This document shows, piece by piece, positions 5,473 to 25,265 of a stretch of DNA of 55,215 bases. The translations under genes and the position numbers were made by a program. The DNA is from Empedobacter stercoris (GTDB lineage: Bacteria > Bacteroidota > Bacteroidia > Flavobacteriales > Weeksellaceae). The notes under the pieces are model-generated. The model searched no databases, was not told the DNA's origin, and worked only from the letters and a program-made list of their open reading frames with translations. The stretch covers positions 1 through 55,215 of the forward strand of contig NZ_JACXZC010000020.1 in NCBI RefSeq assembly GCF_020281205.1, in the 5' to 3' direction. The stretch's first letter is position 1. The number at the start of each line of letters is the position of its first letter.

Positions 5473-6198
5473 CTACAAATTTGCTACTTCAATTTTACGT
5501 AAATATGCTTGAATGGTATTCTCTAAACCTAAATACAAAGCTTCTGAAATTAGTGCATGACCAATTGAAACTTCTGTAATTTGAGGAATTTCACGAATAA
5601 AAAATTCGATGTTATCTAAGCTCAAATCGTGACCCGCATTTACAGCCAATCCATTTTCTATCGCTAATTTTGCGGTTTCTTTGTATGGATTAATCGCTTC
5701 AAGATTTCCTAACCCATATTGTGTAGCAAATTCTTCTGTATACAATTCGATTCGATCTGCACCAGTTTTAGCAGCACTTTCAATTAATGCAGGATTTGGA
5801 TCTAAGAAAATAGAGGTTCTGATTCCAGCATCTTTAAACGTTTTAATGACATCTGTCAAATAATCAAAATGTTTGATTGTGTCCCAACCAGCATTAGAAG
5901 TGATTGCATCTTCTGCATCAGGAACTAAGGTAACTTGTTCTGGTTTCGAATTTAAAACCAATTCCATAAAACTATCAATTGGTTTTCCTTCGATATTAAA
6001 TTCTGTAGTGATCACAGGTTTTAAATCATAGACATCTTGGTAACGAATATGACGCTCATCGGGACGAGGATGAATCGTAATACCTTGTCCACCAAATTCT
6101 TGAATTTTAATTGCCGCTTCTACAAGATTTGGCGTATTTCCACCACGCGCATTACGAATAGTAGCAATTTTATTTATGTTAACACTTAATTTAGTCAT
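5473..6198 (-). CDS. pdxJ: Pyridoxine 5'-phosphate synthase PdxJ
   Basis: PdxJ condenses 1-deoxy-D-xylulose 5-phosphate with 3-amino-2-oxopropyl phosphate to give pyridoxine 5'-phosphate, the last step of the DXP-dependent vitamin B6 route. The 241-aa protein has normal length and the family blocks LSVNINKIATIRNARGG (residues 4-20), GITIHPRPDERHI (39-51), EFNIEG, and the C-terminal NAGHDLS and SIGHALISEA phosphate-binding region. It lies 11 nt after the MscS-like gene and 4 nt before the hydrolase on the same strand. Presence of pdxJ indicates that this organism uses the DXP-dependent rather than the PdxS/T route. Confidence 0.96.
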   Translation of the reverse strand: MTKLSVNINKIATIRNARGGNTPNLVEAAIKIQEFGGQGITIHPRPDERHIRYQDVYDLKPVITTEFNIEGKPIDSFMELVLNSKPEQVTLVPDAEDAITSNAGWDTIKHFDYLTDVIKTFKDAGIRTSIFLDPNPALIESAAKTGADRIELYTEEFATQYGLGNLEAINPYKETAKLAIENGLAVNAGHDLSLDNIEFFIREIPQITEVSIGHALISEALYLGLENTIQAYLRKIEVANL

Positions 6199-6209
6199 GA
6201 TTTTTTATA

Positions 6210-7469
6210 TTATAATTTTTTAAAGTCAGAAAGCGAAAAGCTTTGCATAATTTCCAAGTCAAATTTACGACAAGCTGTTAATAAATGGTCGAAAATGTCG
6301 GATTGAATTCGTTCGAATTCTAAATTATTTGCTGAAGTCGTAAAACAACCAATTTCCAAAGGCATTCCAAGTGGCGAAACAGGTAATTGTTTGACGATGA
6401 TTGGGTCCTTTTGTGATACAGTTTTTAAACTCTTCAAATAACAGTCAACATAGATGCGAAATACACCAATATTGGTTAAGTTTTTACCATTGATATCAAG
6501 ATCAGAATTTTCGATATTTTGATTGTAAATCGAAATTTCATGTCTTTTTTGTTGAATATATTGGTGAATTAAAGCAATATCTTCGAAACGGTTTAACATA
6601 TCTTCATTGCAAAATTGAAACGAATTAACATTAAATGAAATTGAACGTTTTATTTGGCGCGTACCTGTTGCCATCATAGGCATATGATTGGTTACCTGAG
6701 AGGAAACTAAATCCACTGTTGGTACAGTCGCAATCGATTTATCAAACTTTTCAATCTTTACCAAGTTGATGTTAATTTCTTTTACAATACCTTCAATATC
6801 ACCTTTCGAAATTGTAATCCAATCACCAACTTTTACAATTTTAGAATAAGAAATTTGTAAACCAGAAACGAAACCAAAAATAGCATCACGAAAAATTAAT
6901 AATACAGCTGCAGTTAAGGCTCCGAGTACAGTAATAATTGTGTTTTTGTCTACCGTAAACAAAATCATTATTCCAGAGATAATTGAAAAAAATGTGATCA
7001 TAAATTTCATCATCTGACCAAAAGTTCTTACCCCAACAGTGGTATAACTATTTTCTACGTTGTACACATCAATTGTTGCGTTAATTACTCTAAAAATAAG
7101 TTGTGTGAAAACAATTAAAGATATTAATTCTGTAATGCGTTGAATAATAACAAATATATTCCCATCATCTTTAAATAAAATTTGGTTCATGCTCATTGCA
7201 AAACTGATGGGAATAAGATGAATAAGCGAAATAAAAACTTTATTTCTGTACAAAAATATCATCCAATCGTTTTCGGTGAAGTTTTTTATCTTTCTAAGAA
7301 TAGGAAGAATAATCGCTCTCAGAATAAAATCTAATATAAATAAGATTGCGATCCAGATGACAACTTCCAAAAAAGTGAACAGGTTTTCAGACAGATCAAT
7401 TTTGAAGTATTGATTGAAAAAATATTTTACACCATCAGAAATTTCTTCGTAAAAAGATTTATCTTGCAT
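6210..7469 (-). CDS. Mechanosensitive ion channel family protein (MscS/YbdG-like)
   Basis: A 419-aa inner-membrane protein. About five hydrophobic helices lie in the first 200 residues, ending with a pore-helix-like segment (ITVLGALTAAVLLIFRDAIFGFVSGLQIS). The MscS beta domain then begins with the typical VKVGDWITISKGDIEGIVKEIN. The soluble tail is long and contains NHMPMMATGTRQIKRSI, as in YbdG-type channels. Such channels open under membrane tension to release solutes during osmotic downshock. It is the first gene of the apparent MscS-pdxJ-hydrolase operon. A -7 box (TAAATTTG on the minus strand, 7506-7513) lies 36 nt upstream. Confidence 0.9.
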   Translation of the reverse strand: MQDKSFYEEISDGVKYFFNQYFKIDLSENLFTFLEVVIWIAILFILDFILRAIILPILRKIKNFTENDWMIFLYRNKVFISLIHLIPISFAMSMNQILFKDDGNIFVIIQRITELISLIVFTQLIFRVINATIDVYNVENSYTTVGVRTFGQMMKFMITFFSIISGIMILFTVDKNTIITVLGALTAAVLLIFRDAIFGFVSGLQISYSKIVKVGDWITISKGDIEGIVKEININLVKIEKFDKSIATVPTVDLVSSQVTNHMPMMATGTRQIKRSISFNVNSFQFCNEDMLNRFEDIALIHQYIQQKRHEISIYNQNIENSDLDINGKNLTNIGVFRIYVDCYLKSLKTVSQKDPIIVKQLPVSPLGMPLEIGCFTTSANNLEFERIQSDIFDHLLTACRKFDLEIMQSFSLSDFKKL

Positions 7470-18999: not shown

Positions 19000-19212
19000 A
19001 ATGATGTTTTTTTATTTTCTTATACAAATTTACAATTCCAATGTATTGATTGTATTGATGTAGGGTAAGAAGTTTTAATTGAATAAGTTAACATATATCA
19101 ATGGTTTGTATGATCTGTTAAATTTAAATAGTTCTAAAATATAGATGAACGATGTTTGTCTAATTATTGTTTTTTTATATTTGGTTGTATCTATCTAACA
19201 AAATAAATAAAA

Positions 19213-19694
19213 ATGAAAAAAAATTCAATAGTTTTAGGTGTATTTGTATTAGTTACATTAGGATCTTGTAAAAATGAAACACCTCAAGAAAAAGCGCAAA
19301 AAGAGTCACAGAAAGCTTTAGACAAAGCGTATGATGCAAACGAAGCAAATCAAGTTGCGACAAAGCTGTAGTAAAATCAGATATTGCAACAGTTATTTAT
19401 ACAGATATTGCTGCCGCAAATGCTGCTGTTGCTAAAATTCCGATGCCTGCATTGTTAAATGATAAAGCTAAAAAATTAGCAAGTGATTTGGGTAAAGCGT
19501 TGATTGATCGTATTAATGTAAAAGACGCAAAAGAAATAGAGAAATCTGAAAAGAAAATTACTGATTTGAAAAATGATGTTGAAAAAGCTTATCAAGACAG
19601 TAAAATAAATGTTGAGGATCGTGATGCAATCAAAACATATATCGAAGATTGTGTAAGAGCTGCAGTAGCTACTGTTGTTGCTATACATTCTTAA
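19213..19694 (+). pseudogene. Lipoprotein gene interrupted by a single-base frameshift
   Basis: The ATG at 19213 opens a frame with a lipoprotein signal (MKKNSIVLGVFVLVTLGSC) and a Lys/Gln/Glu-rich linker, which stops at the TAG 19369-19371. The next frame continues directly (DKAVVKSDIATVIYTDIAAA...) to the stop at 19694. Restoring one base after position 19358 would join them into one protein of about 160 residues with a helical C-terminal region (alternating Lys/Asp/Glu). I do not recognise the family. The break is either a real mutation or a sequencing error; the second part alone (from ATG 19443) would lack any export signal. Confidence 0.75.
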
Positions 19695-19718: not shown

Positions 19719-19743
19719 CCCACCTCAATTGAGGTGGGTTTAG
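19719..19743 (+). terminator. Intrinsic terminator after the lipoprotein gene
   Basis: The 20-bp perfect palindrome CCCACCTCAA / TTGAGGTGGG followed by TTTA, 24 nt after the stop. The absence of an unpaired loop means the central bases must open. Confidence 0.8.
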
Positions 19744-19749
19744 TTATAT

Positions 19750-19892
19750 ATAATAAATTCTCATCAACCATATTAGGAAGTGTAACCTTTAGCAAAGGCT
19801 CTTCTTCCATGGCACGTTTTGTCGAAAAGATAGCTTCATCGTTTCATTCACATCCCAATGTATATTGATTTTAAACTGTTTTCAGCATCAGA
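19750..19892 (-). pseudogene. Decayed duplicate of the hutU 3' end
   Basis: About 143 bp match the last ~170 bp of hutU (21617-21793), with scattered substitutions and one gap of about 28 bp. Shared blocks include TCATCAACCATATTAGGAAG, GTGTAACCTTTAGCAAAGG and CACATCCCAATG. Homology ends at the point of the hutU stop codon, and that stop is lost in the copy. It lies on the far side of the SWIM gene, so the SWIM gene is bracketed by two copies of the hutU tail. The fragment cannot encode a functional urocanase. Confidence 0.88.
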
Positions 19893-19945
19893 ATTTTATT
19901 CAACTGTTTATTTCAGGTCTATGAGATCACAATTAAACAAATAAA

Positions 19946-21610
19946 TTAGTCAAGTAGTTTTTCTATAAATTCATTATTCTGAATTCTAATTTTTATAAAA
20001 TTATCGCTATTAATTAAAAAATCTAAATATTTTTTAATAAGTATATCGCCGTATGATTTTTTAATTTTATTGATTAAATCAAGTTCCATATCTTTTTGAG
20101 AAGAATAACTGTAGAGATAAGCTAAACGTTTAAGTAAATTTATTAAGAAGGTATTTTTGTTAAATAAAAAGAGTTGATCAAAATAACATAAAATTATTTC
20201 AGCTGGAACATAATTACTTATTACATCGATCATTTTTTTATACTCCTTTTCAGTATCTAATATCTTAAAATATAAATCAATACAATCATCTGATTCGTAA
20301 AAATTTCCTTCAAGATTAGTAAGTGTTTTCGTTCTGAATTTTTTAAACTTTTCTTCTTCATTTAAATGATTTTTTATAAAAAGAAAATCTTCTAATGATG
20401 GATTGTAAGGGAATTTTAAAAGTTTTATTTCTGTATATTTAGGCAAATCATTTGTCTGTTTATAAAGTTTTTCTAGAATATTGTAATAAGGGTAGTTGTA
20501 TTTTTCTTTAGAATTGTTTGAAATAATATCTTTACAATAAGCTTCTACAGCAATATGGTCAGTTTTCATTAGTTCTTCTAAAATCATTAAATTATAGTCA
20601 TTTTGATAAATTGATGGTTTGAAATAATCTTTTATTTCTGTAAACAACTCTGTCTCTATCATGATTTGTAGAAAGAATGTCTGAATCTCTATGTTATAAT
20701 TTATATTTTCCTTATGCCATTTTTTTAGGTAATTTAGAAGGTGTTGTCCGATAATTTTTTTTCTCTCTGTAGTCGCTTGACAATATATTTCTTTATTTAT
20801 TTCAAAATCATTTACAGTTATATTATCCATATTAAGGAAGTTGCTCCAATGATCAAGTACAACGTTTTTCCATTGTTCTTCTACTGCTATTTTATTGATC
20901 CTAAAAGCATATTTTTCTATAATAGCGTAAACATATTTTTCTAATCTTTTACTTGTTGTACCCGAGTTAAAATGAAAAGAAAGTAATAAATCACATATTC
21001 TTATAATTAGTGGTTTTGCGATTTCTGTCGTCTTAATAATGCAATCTATATAAGCAAATACAGGTTCAAGAGCAATTTGTAGTAAATCGATTATCTTTTT
21101 TACTTCGGATATTTCTACTTTCCTTTTTTTACCTATTATTGAGGTTATTGTATCTTTTATTAATTGTTCTACTTCATCAAGAGAATACTCTTTTTGTTTT
21201 TGAGAAAATGATAACATGAAATATTGTTCAGCTTCTCTATTTGTATTAAAAAAATCAAGTAACCATTTTCTTAAATCTTCTTCTTCAATTAGTTTAAGTA
21301 AAGTTTCGCTCTCTTTTTCTTTTTTTATGCGAGTTTTTTTAACAGGTTTTAAAGAGGTAAGTTTTACGATTTCTTCTAGCATTTTTTTTTGATGAATACA
21401 CCAAGATTCGTTACTTCCACAATCACAAGAATGGGAAGTAACTTCTTTATTTTTGATTACTATATTTACATCGTAACTATTCGACTGGTCATCTACAAAA
21501 GCAATAAAGTTCCCTTTTTTTTCTTCTTCTAATTCTCTAATTTCGAGTTTTTTAATATCTCTTTTGTTTTGAGAAGAAATTAATTTGAGTAAATTTTCAA
21601 TAGTATTCAT
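19946..21610 (-). CDS. SWIM zinc-finger domain protein (554 aa)
   Basis: Near the N-terminus (residues 62-73) is C-D-C-x6-C-x-H, the CxCxnCxH pattern of a SWIM zinc finger. The preceding strand NSYDVNIVIKNKEVTSHSC is typical of how that domain is entered. A Lys/Glu-rich linker follows (about 85-105), then some 440 residues of predicted helical repeats with many Tyr, Phe, Leu and Lys. SWIM domains bind nucleic acid or protein partners, and many bacterial versions are uncharacterised. The gene starts 6 nt after the hutU stop on the same strand. It is markedly AT-richer than hutU and hutH, and lies between the true hutU end and its decayed duplicate, which suggests arrival by recombination. Confidence 0.8.
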   Translation of the reverse strand: MNTIENLLKLISSQNKRDIKKLEIRELEEEKKGNFIAFVDDQSNSYDVNIVIKNKEVTSHSCDCGSNESWCIHQKKMLEEIVKLTSLKPVKKTRIKKEKESETLLKLIEEEDLRKWLLDFFNTNREAEQYFMLSFSQKQKEYSLDEVEQLIKDTITSIIGKKRKVEISEVKKIIDLLQIALEPVFAYIDCIIKTTEIAKPLIIRICDLLLSFHFNSGTTSKRLEKYVYAIIEKYAFRINKIAVEEQWKNVVLDHWSNFLNMDNITVNDFEINKEIYCQATTERKKIIGQHLLNYLKKWHKENINYNIEIQTFFLQIMIETELFTEIKDYFKPSIYQNDYNLMILEELMKTDHIAVEAYCKDIISNNSKEKYNYPYYNILEKLYKQTNDLPKYTEIKLLKFPYNPSLEDFLFIKNHLNEEEKFKKFRTKTLTNLEGNFYESDDCIDLYFKILDTEKEYKKMIDVISNYVPAEIILCYFDQLFLFNKNTFLINLLKRLAYLYSYSSQKDMELDLINKIKKSYGDILIKKYLDFLINSDNFIKIRIQNNEFIEKLLD

Positions 21611-21616
21611 AAGCTT

Positions 21617-23596
21617 TTATAATAAATTTTCATCAACCATATTAGGAAGTGTAACCTTTAGCAAAGGTTCTTCTTCCATAGCGCGTTTAATCGCAAAAAT
21701 AGCTTCGTCATTTCTTGCCCAAGAACGTCGAGCAATTCCATTGTTCACATCCCAATGTAACATTGATTTTAAACGGTTTTCAGCATCTGAAGATCCATCT
21801 AACAGCATTCCAAAACCACCGTTGATTACTTCGCCCCAACCAACGCCACCACCGTTGTGAATAGAAACCCAAGTTGCGCCACGGAAACTATCCCCAATAA
21901 CATTATGAATCGCCATATCAGCTGTAAATTTTGAACCATCATAAATGTTAGACGTTTCGCGAAAAGGAGAATCTGTACCCGAAACATCATGATGATCACG
22001 ACCTAAAACAACTGGCTCTATTTCGCCTTTCGCAATTGCATCGTTAAAGGCTTTCGCAATTTTGATTCGTCCTTCTGCATCTGCATATAAAATTCGAGCT
22101 TGCGATCCAACAACCAATTTATTTTCTTGCGCACCTTTTATCCACGTAATATTATCTTGCATCTGTTGTTGAATTTCAGCAGGAGAATGTTGCATAATCT
22201 TTTCTAAAACTTGACAAGCGATTTCGTCGGTTTTTAGTAAATCTTCTGGTTTTCCAGAAGTACAGACCCAACGGAATGGTCCAAATCCGTAATCGAAACA
22301 CATTGGACCCATAATATCTTGTACATACGAAGGATATTTGAAATCGATTCCGTTTTCTGCCATAACATCCGCTCCAGCACGAGAAGCTTCTAATAAAAAG
22401 GCATTTCCATAATCAAAAAAATACGTTCCTTTTGCAGTATGTTTATTAACCGCAGCAGCATGACGACGAAGAGATTCTTGGACTTTTTCTTTGAATAACT
22501 CTGGGTTTTCGGCCATCATTTGATTTGATTCTTCTAATGTTAATCCAACCGGATAATAACCACCAGCCCAAGGATTATGCAAAGAAGTTTGATCTGATCC
22601 TAAATCAATATAAACGTTTTCTTGGTCAAATTTTTCCCAAACATCAACGATATTTCCATCATAAGCAATCGAAACAACTTCTTTATCTGCTTTAGCTTTT
22701 TTTACACGAGTTACTAATTCATCCAAGTCAGCAATCACTTCATCTACCCAACCTTGTTCATGACGTTTGTAGGTTGCAGCAGGATTAACTTCTGCAGTAA
22801 CAGATACCACTCCTGCAATATTTCCTGCTTTTGGTTGAGCTCCAGACATTCCGCCTAAACCAGCCGTAACAAATAATTTTCCTGCTGTTCCTTTATCATC
22901 AATTTTACGACAACCATTCAAAACAGTAATCGTTGTTCCATGTACAATTCCTTGCGGACCAATATACATGTAACTTCCTGCCGTCATTTGTCCGTATTGA
23001 GAAACGCCTAATGTATTCATTTTTTCCCAATCATCAGGTTGCGAATAATTAGGAATGACCATTCCATTCGTAACGACAACACGAGGCGCATTTTTGTGTG
23101 AAGGAAACAATCCCATTGGATGACCAGAATACATGACCAATGTTTGTTCGTCTGTCATTTCAGACAAATATTTCATTGTTAACAGATATTGTGCCCAGTT
23201 CTGAAAAACAGCACCATTTCCTCCGTAAGTAATCAATTCTTCTGGGTGTTGTGCAACTGCATGATCCAAGTTGTTTTGAATCATTAATTGAATTGCTTTT
23301 GCTTGTTCCGAATTTCCTGGATAATCTGTAATTGGACGTGCAAAAATTTTATAATCAGGCATCAAACGATACATGTAAATTCGACCAAAATCTTCTAATT
23401 CTTGTTTAAATTCTGGAATTAATTCAGCATGATGAATAGGATCGAAATAACGTAAAGCATTTTTAAGTGCTAATTTTTTTTCGTCCTCTGATAATATTTC
23501 TTTACGCTTTGGAGCGTGACTTACATTGGGATCTCTGTCTTTTTTTTGAGGTAAAATAGAAGGAATACCTTGTTTTATTTGTTCTTGAAAAGTCAT
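21617..23596 (-). CDS. hutU: Urocanate hydratase HutU
   Basis: HutU converts urocanate to imidazolonepropionate, the second step of histidine degradation, using tightly bound NAD+. The 659-aa protein carries the NAD+ loop YIGPQGIVHGTT (near residue 215), ITYGGNGAVFQNWAQY (near 122), and MGPMCFDYGFGPFRW with the active-site Cys region. The C-terminal HNGGGVGWGEVINGGFG block is also present. It is about 100 residues longer than the Bacillus type; longer forms are common in Bacteroidota. It lies downstream of hutH with a 121-nt gap containing a dispersed repeat. The SWIM gene follows 6 nt downstream. Confidence 0.96.
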   Translation of the reverse strand: MTFQEQIKQGIPSILPQKKDRDPNVSHAPKRKEILSEDEKKLALKNALRYFDPIHHAELIPEFKQELEDFGRIYMYRLMPDYKIFARPITDYPGNSEQAKAIQLMIQNNLDHAVAQHPEELITYGGNGAVFQNWAQYLLTMKYLSEMTDEQTLVMYSGHPMGLFPSHKNAPRVVVTNGMVIPNYSQPDDWEKMNTLGVSQYGQMTAGSYMYIGPQGIVHGTTITVLNGCRKIDDKGTAGKLFVTAGLGGMSGAQPKAGNIAGVVSVTAEVNPAATYKRHEQGWVDEVIADLDELVTRVKKAKADKEVVSIAYDGNIVDVWEKFDQENVYIDLGSDQTSLHNPWAGGYYPVGLTLEESNQMMAENPELFKEKVQESLRRHAAAVNKHTAKGTYFFDYGNAFLLEASRAGADVMAENGIDFKYPSYVQDIMGPMCFDYGFGPFRWVCTSGKPEDLLKTDEIACQVLEKIMQHSPAEIQQQMQDNITWIKGAQENKLVVGSQARILYADAEGRIKIAKAFNDAIAKGEIEPVVLGRDHHDVSGTDSPFRETSNIYDGSKFTADMAIHNVIGDSFRGATWVSIHNGGGVGWGEVINGGFGMLLDGSSDAENRLKSMLHWDVNNGIARRSWARNDEAIFAIKRAMEEEPLLKVTLPNMVDENLL

Positions 23597-23717: not shown

Positions 23718-25265
23718 TTAGAAACTTAAAATCAATTTCTTGAAATCTTCTGTTTGTAACAAATCGATAATAGTATTGATATCATCTCCAATCAAACGAT
23801 CGTCTTCTAATTTTGGACAAACTGAACGAACTTTTGCAAAAACTTCTTCTAAGAAAGCACTTGTTTTACGAGGTCTTCTAAATTCTAAACCTTGACAAGC
23901 GTACATTAATTCGATTGCTAAAATACGTTCTACATTATCTAAAACTTGGTTGAATTTTCGTCCAGAAATACTTCCCATTGAAACGTGATCTTCTTGTCCC
24001 AAAGATGTTGGAATACTATCAGCAGATGCAGGGAAACACAACGTTTTGTTTTCTGTACAAAGCGCGGCAGAAGTGTATTGAGGAATCATAAATCCAGAAT
24101 TTAACCCAGAACTTTCTGTTAATAACTTTGGTAATCCATATTTTCCTTCGATTAATAAATATTGACGACGATCCGAAATATTTCCTAATTCAGAGGCTGC
24201 AATTGTCGCATAATCTAACACCATTGCTAATGGTTGTCCGTGAAAGTTTCCACCTGAAATAGCTTCTTCATCCGAAACAACGATTGGATTATCCGTAACA
24301 GAATTTAATTCGATTTCAGCTAATTCTTGTAAATGGAAAAATGCATTTCGTGATGCGCCATGAACTTGTGGCATGCAACGCAACGAATAGGGATCTTGTA
24401 CACGACCACATTCTACATGAGAGAAAGCGATTTCAGAACCTTTTAATAAATTTCTCATACGTTCTGCAACCAACAATGTTCCTTTGAATGGGCGAACTTG
24501 GTGTAATTCTTCTTCGAATGGACGAGGCGAACCTTCGTAAGCTTCTAATGATAAAGCGCCTGCGACGTCAGCTAAATTCAATAAATATTCAAATTTCTCT
24601 AATCCGTGTAAGGCATGAGATAAGATGAATTGTGTTCCATTGATTAATCCTAAACCTTCTTTTGCGGATAAGTTTAATGGTTGTAGATGATGTTTGGCTA
24701 AAGCTTCTTTTGTCGAAACAATTGTATCGCCATCCCAAACTTTTCCTTCGCCGATTAAGGGTAAAAATAAATGTGATAAAGGAGCTAAATCTCCAGATGC
24801 ACCAACAGATCCTTTTTCTGGAACAACTGGAATAATGTCTTTTTCAACCATTACTAAAATTCGTTCCACCACATCTAAAGTCACACCTGAATAGCCTTTT
24901 GATAAAGCATGTGCTTTTGCAATTAACATGGTTTTAGAAATTTCTTTCTTAATCGGATTTCCCACACCAACTGCATGACTGATTAATAGATTGTGTTGAA
25001 GTTGACGCGTTTCTGCTTCAGAGATTTTTGTGTCGCAAAGAGGTCCAAAACCAGTGTTTATTCCATAAACTGTTTGTCCAGAAGCAACTATTTTAGCAAC
25101 GTTTTGTTGAGATTTTAAGATTTGTTCTTTACTTGCTTCGTTAAGCTCAATTTCGATATTTCCTTCTTTGATTCCTTTGTAATCCTCGAACGAAAGAAAA
25201 TCAATACCGTAAGTTTTCTTGATCATTTTTTCGATTTTGTGATACATCAAAGATAATCTTTTCAT
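23718..25265 (-). CDS. hutH: Histidine ammonia-lyase HutH
   Basis: HutH removes ammonia from L-histidine to give urocanate. The electrophilic MIO group forms from Ala156-Ser157-Gly158 in GSVGASGDLAPLSH. Also visible are YGINTGFGPLCDT (68-79), LINGTQF, and the C-terminal ALCTENKTLCFPASADSIPTS and QEDHVSMG blocks. With the start used the protein has 515 residues; a later in-frame ATG at 25226 (residue 14, MIKKTYGIDFL) would give 502 and may be the true start. It is first in the hutH-hutU unit. hutI and a hutG/formimidoyl-transferase gene are not in the window. Confidence 0.95.
   Translation of the reverse strand: MKRLSLMYHKIEKMIKKTYGIDFLSFEDYKGIKEGNIEIELNEASKEQILKSQQNVAKIVASGQTVYGINTGFGPLCDTKISEAETRQLQHNLLISHAVGVGNPIKKEISKTMLIAKAHALSKGYSGVTLDVVERILVMVEKDIIPVVPEKGSVGASGDLAPLSHLFLPLIGEGKVWDGDTIVSTKEALAKHHLQPLNLSAKEGLGLINGTQFILSHALHGLEKFEYLLNLADVAGALSLEAYEGSPRPFEEELHQVRPFKGTLLVAERMRNLLKGSEIAFSHVECGRVQDPYSLRCMPQVHGASRNAFFHLQELAEIELNSVTDNPIVVSDEEAISGGNFHGQPLAMVLDYATIAASELGNISDRRQYLLIEGKYGLPKLLTESSGLNSGFMIPQYTSAALCTENKTLCFPASADSIPTSLGQEDHVSMGSISGRKFNQVLDNVERILAIELMYACQGLEFRRPRKTSAFLEEVFAKVRSVCPKLEDDRLIGDDINTIIDLLQTEDFKKLILSF

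What the first reader, a model, noticed from the sequence alone, without database searches (positions are those of the whole stretch)
19750..21793. SWIM-domain gene bracketed by intact and decayed copies of the hutU 3' end
The last ~170 bp of hutU (21617-21793) reappear, diverged and with a ~28-bp gap, at 19750-19892 on the same strand. The SWIM gene lies exactly between the two. Homology in the outer copy stops at the hutU stop codon. The simplest model is that DNA carrying a hutU 3' end plus the SWIM gene recombined into the resident hutU, leaving the old hutU tail as a scar. That would make the hutU 3' end an insertion point for a cargo gene. The SWIM gene is AT-richer than its neighbours, which fits transfer.
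Basis: partly seen in the sequence, partly recalled or inferred. Interest (0 to 1): 0.75.

Follow-up and report, generated by a model that had tools for sequence, protein, structure and literature searches.

The report
Gene slots in behind urocanase gene
In this bacterium and some relatives, foreign genes appear to have been slipped in repeatedly right behind the histidine-breakdown gene hutU, on DNA that brings its own copy of hutU's end, so hutU stays whole and its old end is left behind as a scar.

Summary
Intact hutU (21617-23596, -) is followed after 6 nt by a 554-aa SWIM-type gene, then a decayed copy of the last ~172 nt of hutU (19749-19893), then a terminator-like hairpin. It is not a one-off: of 320 family genomes, 296 match the hutU end and 16 of these carry such a tail just downstream of an intact hutU, behind about eight different cargo genes; some have two tails. 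Control genes almost never do. Tail and intact end differ mainly at third codon positions and at sites variable between species, so they are different hutU alleles. In G173 and G220 (Chryseobacterium-type) the cargo (91.6%) and the last 100 nt of hutU (94%) are alike while the rest of hutU is 83% alike: tail plus cargo moved as a unit. One cargo family, found in 12 of 296 genomes and six genera, always lies by hutU. Best reading: the hutU 3' end is a homology-driven docking site for recombinase-less gene cassettes, probably entered by one crossover. It resembles e14/icd and integron cassettes, but no recombinase was seen. Cargo function, vehicle and a circular intermediate are not shown; 'host' was judged from hutU alone.

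The parts
21617..23596 (-). hutU, intact urocanate hydratase gene (659 aa); its last ~172 nt are the duplicated part
   Evidence: three Pfam urocanase domains; ORF
21617..21791 (-). inner (functional) copy of the hutU 3' end
   Evidence: alignment with the outer copy
19946..21610 (-). cargo: 554-aa SWIM-type gene starting 6 nt after the hutU stop, same orientation
   Evidence: ORF; 16-member alignment with invariant C62, C64, C71, H73
19749..19893 (-). outer, decayed hutU tail (hutU -172 to the stop), about 28-nt deletion
19719..19738 (.). palindromic terminator-like hairpin just beyond the outer tail; several relatives have a similar palindrome beyond hutU or beyond its cargo
   Evidence: read directly; relatives
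23718..25265 (-). aromatic amino acid lyase gene (hutH by position) upstream on the same strand; with hutU it would put the cargo in a hut transcription unit (inference)
   Evidence: ORF; Pfam Lyase_aromatic E 9e-185

Best explanation
The hutU 3' end is a recurrent docking site for gene cassettes in this family (Weeksellaceae-type bacteria). A cassette is DNA made of a stretch of another strain's hutU 3' end, often about 110-175 nt, followed at once by a cargo gene, usually one. It recombines by homology with the resident hutU. The incoming tail completes hutU, so hutU stays functional; the cargo lands just behind the hutU stop and before the resident terminator; the resident hutU tail is pushed downstream of the cargo and decays. 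Repeats of the event stack cassettes. In the window the cargo is the SWIM-type gene. SHOWN: the duplication, its recurrence, the allelic (codon-preserving) difference between tail and intact end, and sharing of tail plus cargo between two lineages beyond the rest of hutU, with a switch near the tail start. INFERRED: that one reciprocal crossover of a circular (or ends-in) molecule does it, that ordinary host recombination is the machinery, that the cargo is transcribed with hut, and that the window's own event had the same mechanism.
For: Recurrence: 16 of the 296 family genomes that match the hutU end have a tail right behind an intact hutU. Anatomy, in 13 of these 16: hutU-cargo gap 0-25 nt in 12 of 13 (91 in G105), cargo-tail gap 1-58 nt; G196 (broken cargo), G238 (no clear cargo) and G299 (two ORFs, the first 663 nt away) were left out. 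Allelic tails: 180 of 316 mismatches at third codon positions, p 0.008 even against one half; in the window 10 of 14 differences fall at the 61 of 172 columns that vary among 11 relatives, p 0.005. Unit transfer: G173/G220 cargo 91.6%, last 100 nt of hutU 94%, rest of hutU 83%; G220 switches from G105-like to G173-like near -108/-97, Fisher p 0.002. Mosaic order: perfect in G196 (5 then 4 sites), stratified test over nine genomes p 0.003. Cargo tied to hutU: 130-aa family, 12 of 12 genomes, six genera (11 within 100 nt, G022 a broken copy ~870 nt away); 150-aa family, 6 of 7 among 30 chosen genomes, the seventh ~6 kb off. Specificity: 0 of 521 control ORFs; 1 of 519 others, tandem-paralogue-like; cysS end 2 of 312 with more than one match.
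Against: No circular form or carrier was found: viral contigs gave none for hutU or the 130-aa cargo (SWIM not tried there), the plasmid hits match urocanase or unannotated DNA, 12 of 13 over 80% or more of the query, and the one phage-collection hit is a bacterial-looking hut gene cluster. The single-crossover pattern is not uniform: G220's outer tail matches G105 at only 4 of 11 informative sites; G129 and G275 trend the other way; G105 and G173 have no site of one class. 'Host' means nearest by the hutU body; no species tree was made, and G173 and G292, nearly identical in hutU and flank, carry different genus labels, so the whole region may itself move. Tail starts cluster (11 of 22 in one 22-nt bin; p about 5e-5 against uniform lengths, 0.05 against a decaying length law; bin width chosen after seeing the data), which plain homology does not predict. 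Neighbours with different versus same DNA behind hutU differ only modestly in tail divergence (p 0.01 for 28 and 12 nearest pairs; 0.03 for 155 non-independent pairs). For the window no donor was found.
Confidence: 0.7

Rival explanations
1. Site-specific integration: a trans-acting tyrosine or serine recombinase inserts cassettes at a core site around hutU -110 to -130, with the cassette's hutU tail restoring the gene, as e14 does in icd.
For: Tail starts of different cargo families cluster at -108 to -129; cassettes are compact with sharp ends; stacked tails recall integrons.
Against: No recombinase in any cargo scanned: the window, G105, G129, G173, G197, G248, G035 and G220, G275, G280 and the large G299 ORF (Pfam only); the cargo of G196, G198, G237 and G238 was not scanned. 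No shared motif was noticed on the cassette side by eye. Tail starts range from -47 to -357. In the 22 genomes no tail lay far from hutU on the same contig, as a large island would give.
Confidence: 0.17
2. In-situ duplication: the hutU tail was duplicated within one genome, a gene later landed between the copies, and the outer copy decayed.
For: In the window the two copies are more like each other (90%) than either is to any relative outside the species; the outer copy has clear decay at conserved sites; G238 has a tandem repeat unit.
Against: Third-position excess and clustering of differences at between-species variable sites; tail plus cargo shared between lineages beyond the rest of hutU; recurrence with different cargo.
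Confidence: 0.08
3. Homology-facilitated illegitimate recombination of linear DNA: one end pairs in hutU, the other joins at random inside the resident tail.
For: Tail lengths vary; this kind of event is discussed for Vibrio cholerae immunity-gene arrays (PMC5361080, passages).
Against: Random joins do not predict that the cargo stop lies 1-58 nt from the tail in 13 of 13 cases measured, nor a switch point near the tail start.
Confidence: 0.15

Closest known systems
e14 prophage in icd of Escherichia coli (163-bp 3'-end duplication; PMC6379469, passages read)
   Same: The incoming DNA carries the 3' end of the target gene and restores it, and the old 3' end lies beyond the insert.
   Different: e14 is a 15-kb prophage inserted site-specifically; here inserts mostly hold one gene and no recombinase was seen.
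Insertion with long target duplication, Helicobacter pylori restriction-modification genes (Nobusato et al. 2000, not read; known through passages of PMC1643837 and PMC3031569)
   Same: A gene insert flanked by long, variable direct repeats of host DNA.
   Different: There described for restriction-modification genes; here one fixed target gene, changing cargo, and repeat copies that are different alleles.
Integron gene cassettes (general knowledge; comparison also drawn in PMC5361080, passage)
   Same: Compact units, stacked behind a fixed point, probably read from an upstream promoter.
   Different: The shared sequence is a housekeeping gene's end; no integrase was seen in the cargo, and attC sites were not searched for.
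T6SS immunity-gene arrays of Vibrio cholerae and Rhs displaced ends (PMC5361080, passages)
   Same: Serial insertion pushes the previous gene's 3' end and older genes downstream.
   Different: There the anchor is an effector gene cluster; here it is urocanase, unrelated to the cargo.

Membership tests
e14/icd-type integrase element | target gene 3' end completed by the insert, old end left beyond it | tested here: met
e14/icd-type integrase element | recombinase encoded in the insert | tested here: not met
   window: one ORF between the copies, no recombinase match; ten other cargo ORFs scanned, none; a trans-acting one is not excluded
e14/icd-type integrase element | fixed crossover site | tested here: inconclusive
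   tail starts cluster but range from -47 to -357; the crossover intervals inferred in G220 (-108/-97) and G196 (-111/-76) overlap
Insertion with long target duplication | insert flanked by long direct repeats of target DNA | tested here: met
Insertion with long target duplication | restriction-modification cargo | tested here: not met
   no significant PADLOC or NCBIfam match that would name such a gene among the cargo scanned
Integron cassettes | attC site and IntI integrase | not tested
   no dedicated attC or IntI search was made
SWIM zinc-finger proteins (PF04434) | CxC...CxH pattern | tested here: met
   C62, C64, C71, H73 invariant in 16 homologues; that this is the SWIM pattern is recalled
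SWIM zinc-finger proteins (PF04434) | model score over the curated cut-off | tested here: not met
   no hit for the window protein or its genome; 9 of 16 homologues match only at E <= 1, best 0.0012

The most novel reading that the evidence does not exclude
The family has a de facto gene-cassette system without its own recombinase: the 3' end of a housekeeping gene, hutU, acts as the shared attachment sequence. Cassettes of hutU tail plus cargo circulate between species and genera, integrate reversibly by one crossover, and stack behind hutU, where they borrow its promoter.
Probability: 0.35. Interest if true: 0.85.

Novelty: new variant of a known kind. Interest (0 to 1): 0.72.

Why it matters
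It would show that accessory genes can spread as compact cassettes using only homology to a conserved gene's end, with no integrase or transposase of their own. The scars record each arrival, and most cargo scanned has no known family, so the site is a place to look for new accessory functions. No paper describing hutU as such a site turned up in three searches of the held library (no paper; seven listed, none opened).

Tried and rejected
Genome-contig search with the SWIM protein found nothing. Viral-contig searches with hutU and with the 130-aa cargo found nothing. The phage-collection hit is an unverified faecal scaffold with hutU, an aromatic lyase-like and a further hut-like frame in a row, so probably bacterial (names by inspection). 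Pfam, NCBIfam and PADLOC gave little for the cargo: WG repeats in G248, type IX secretion and P domains in G299's large ORF, a weak SecD-like stretch in G035. Structure prediction of the SWIM protein was never accepted because the machine was busy. The idea that cassettes end at a transcript terminator fits G275 only, by eye. Other repeats within 6 kb, not tail-only, were present behind 5 of 521 and up to 20 of 520 genes (the 20 include the two tail-only cases). G000 and G273 are one event and were counted once; the second G238 tail was dropped, G252 and a marginal third G280 hit. From the count of 16 I left out G252 (broken hutU), G094, G208, G286 and G025 (a second near-full hutU) and G015 (tails on other contigs). 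The order test used 9 of the 12 genomes: G105 and G173 lack one class of site, G237 was left out; its site lists were copied by hand. The 80 loci come from genomes with a single match and show only two weak tails, G020 and G089.
Full report
WHAT IS THERE. On the minus strand the window reads: an aromatic amino acid lyase gene, hutH by position (25265-23718), hutU (23596-21617), a 554-aa gene (21610-19946), a decayed copy of the hutU 3' end (19893-19749) and a terminator-like hairpin (19719-19738). The outer copy covers hutU positions -172 to the stop (0 = first base of the stop codon), with 129 matches, 14 mismatches and a deletion of about 28 nt. The same arrangement is in G273, labelled the same species, with the SWIM protein 99% identical.

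IT IS ABSENT FROM OTHER MEMBERS OF THE GENUS. None of 12 (G001-G012) has a full-length match to the SWIM protein; eight have a weak, partial match in another gene. Behind hutU four have a palindrome with no gene before it (G003, G006, G009, G010), G005 a hairpin, four a ~120-aa lipoprotein-like gene (G001, G004, G007, G012), G002 what looks like a remnant of it, G008 another gene and G011 an opposite-strand gene (roles by inspection).

IT RECURS ACROSS THE FAMILY. A search of 320 family genomes with the last 92 residues of HutU gave a match in 296 and more than one in 22. Sixteen of the 22 have a tail fragment just downstream of an intact hutU on the same strand; G015 has tails on other contigs; four have a second near-full hutU; G252 has a broken hutU. 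Cargo differs: SWIM (G000, G273), a 130-aa membrane-type protein (G173, G198, G220, G237, G275), a 150-aa family (G129, G280), MIGIID proteins (G197, and G196 in two pieces), and single cases in G105, G248, G035 and G299; G238 has no clear cargo, only two tandem units that run into the tail, and G299 has two ORFs. G173, G237, G238, G280 and G299 show two tails by comparison with their own hutU. A DNA profile of 97 hutU ends also found weaker tails in G089 and G020 among 113 loci, and one in G232. Outside the family, 3 of 171 matching genomes of the order had two matches, not examined.

IT IS NOT A GENERAL FEATURE OF GENES. With one DNA criterion, 0 of 521 other ORFs in the hutU loci and 1 of 519 others in 800 kb of G220 and G000 plus the window had a tail-only duplication; that one, a 533-aa protein matching over 381 columns, looks like a tandem paralogue. 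The cysS end gave more than one match in 2 of 312 genomes, not examined. These controls cover few genes or few genomes.

THE COPIES ARE DIFFERENT ALLELES. In the window 10 of 14 differences lie at columns that vary among 11 relatives (61 of 172 columns; p 0.005); the other four lie at fully conserved sites, as decay added later would give.

TAIL PLUS CARGO MOVES AS A UNIT. G173 and G220 share the 130-aa cargo at 91.6% and the last 100 nt of hutU at 94%, although the rest of hutU is 83% alike. G220's hutU resembles G105 up to about -108 and the G173 group from -97 on (89 of 127 informative sites G105-like upstream, 1 of 8 downstream, Fisher p 0.002). Beyond G220's outer tail lies DNA like that directly behind G105's hutU (91.6% over 178 nt) and, further on, G105's cargo gene (93%); yet the outer tail itself matches G105 at only 4 of 11 informative sites. 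G198 against G287 shows a jump in divergence at about -130; in G248/G128 the jump is better explained by a change in G128. The 130-aa family was found in 12 of 296 genomes, six genera, and lies by hutU in all 12, some copies being broken (hutU places). A 150-aa family was sought in only 30 chosen genomes: 7 hits, 6 by hutU. G173 and G292 have nearly the same hutU body (98.9%) and the same flank further on (99.6% over 1625 nt) but different DNA between. They carry different genus labels, so either the whole region moved or a label is wrong; since 'host' is judged here from hutU alone, this weakens the host/donor calls.

HOW IT PROBABLY WORKS. In 13 of the 16 cases measured, the cargo starts 0-25 nt behind hutU in 12 and stops 1-58 nt before the tail in 13. 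In G196 the sites where the copies differ fall in perfect order: the inner copy is host-like at five upstream sites, the outer at four downstream ones, as one reciprocal crossover inside the homology predicts (its only host reference, G238, has tails of its own). Over nine genomes the order test gives p 0.003, but G129 and G275 run the other way and G220 fits only in part. A circle carrying hutU tail plus cargo, or an equivalent ends-in molecule, would do this by ordinary recombination. That step is inferred; no circle or carrier was found. Clustering of tail starts keeps a site-specific rival alive.

THE CARGO. The SWIM-type protein has an invariant CxC..CxH pattern in 16 homologues. Of the homologous loci looked at, most have, directly upstream, a long gene with a shared C-terminal motif, which I take from recall for an alpha-2-macroglobulin-like gene; others have a ~275-aa gene there. 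Its function is unknown; a nucleic-acid or protein-binding role is a guess from the domain. Most other cargo scanned has no clear family.

CHANGES ON CHECKING. 

Noticed in passing
window 19207-19694, +: A small lipoprotein-like gene facing hutU is interrupted by a frameshift; G273 shows the same downstream open frame.
   Followed up: no
L098 (G263), around 5585-5630 and 7388-7432: Another SWIM homologue is flanked by two copies (46 nt, 87%) of a terminator-like hairpin, the first just behind the long upstream gene: perhaps a similar insertion at another gene's end.
   Followed up: partly
L090 (G238), just behind hutU: Two tandem units of 281 nt, each an 87-aa frame that runs into a hutU tail.
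   Followed up: no
L060 1210-1434 and L061 5564-5723 (G015): hutU tails on other contigs; one lies next to a nitroreductase-like gene resembling the one directly behind hutU in G046 and G322 (by eye), suggesting an array split by contig ends.
   Followed up: partly
G104 and many other g21 (Chryseobacterium-type) loci, about 16 nt behind hutU: A ~180-aa regulator-like gene sits in the same place without any detected tail, as if fixed in that clade.
   Followed up: no
G173 (L084) and G292 (L171): hutU and a downstream flank nearly identical although the genomes carry different genus labels: regional transfer or mislabelling.
   Followed up: no
G157 and G282: More than one match to the CysS C-terminal part.
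   Followed up: no
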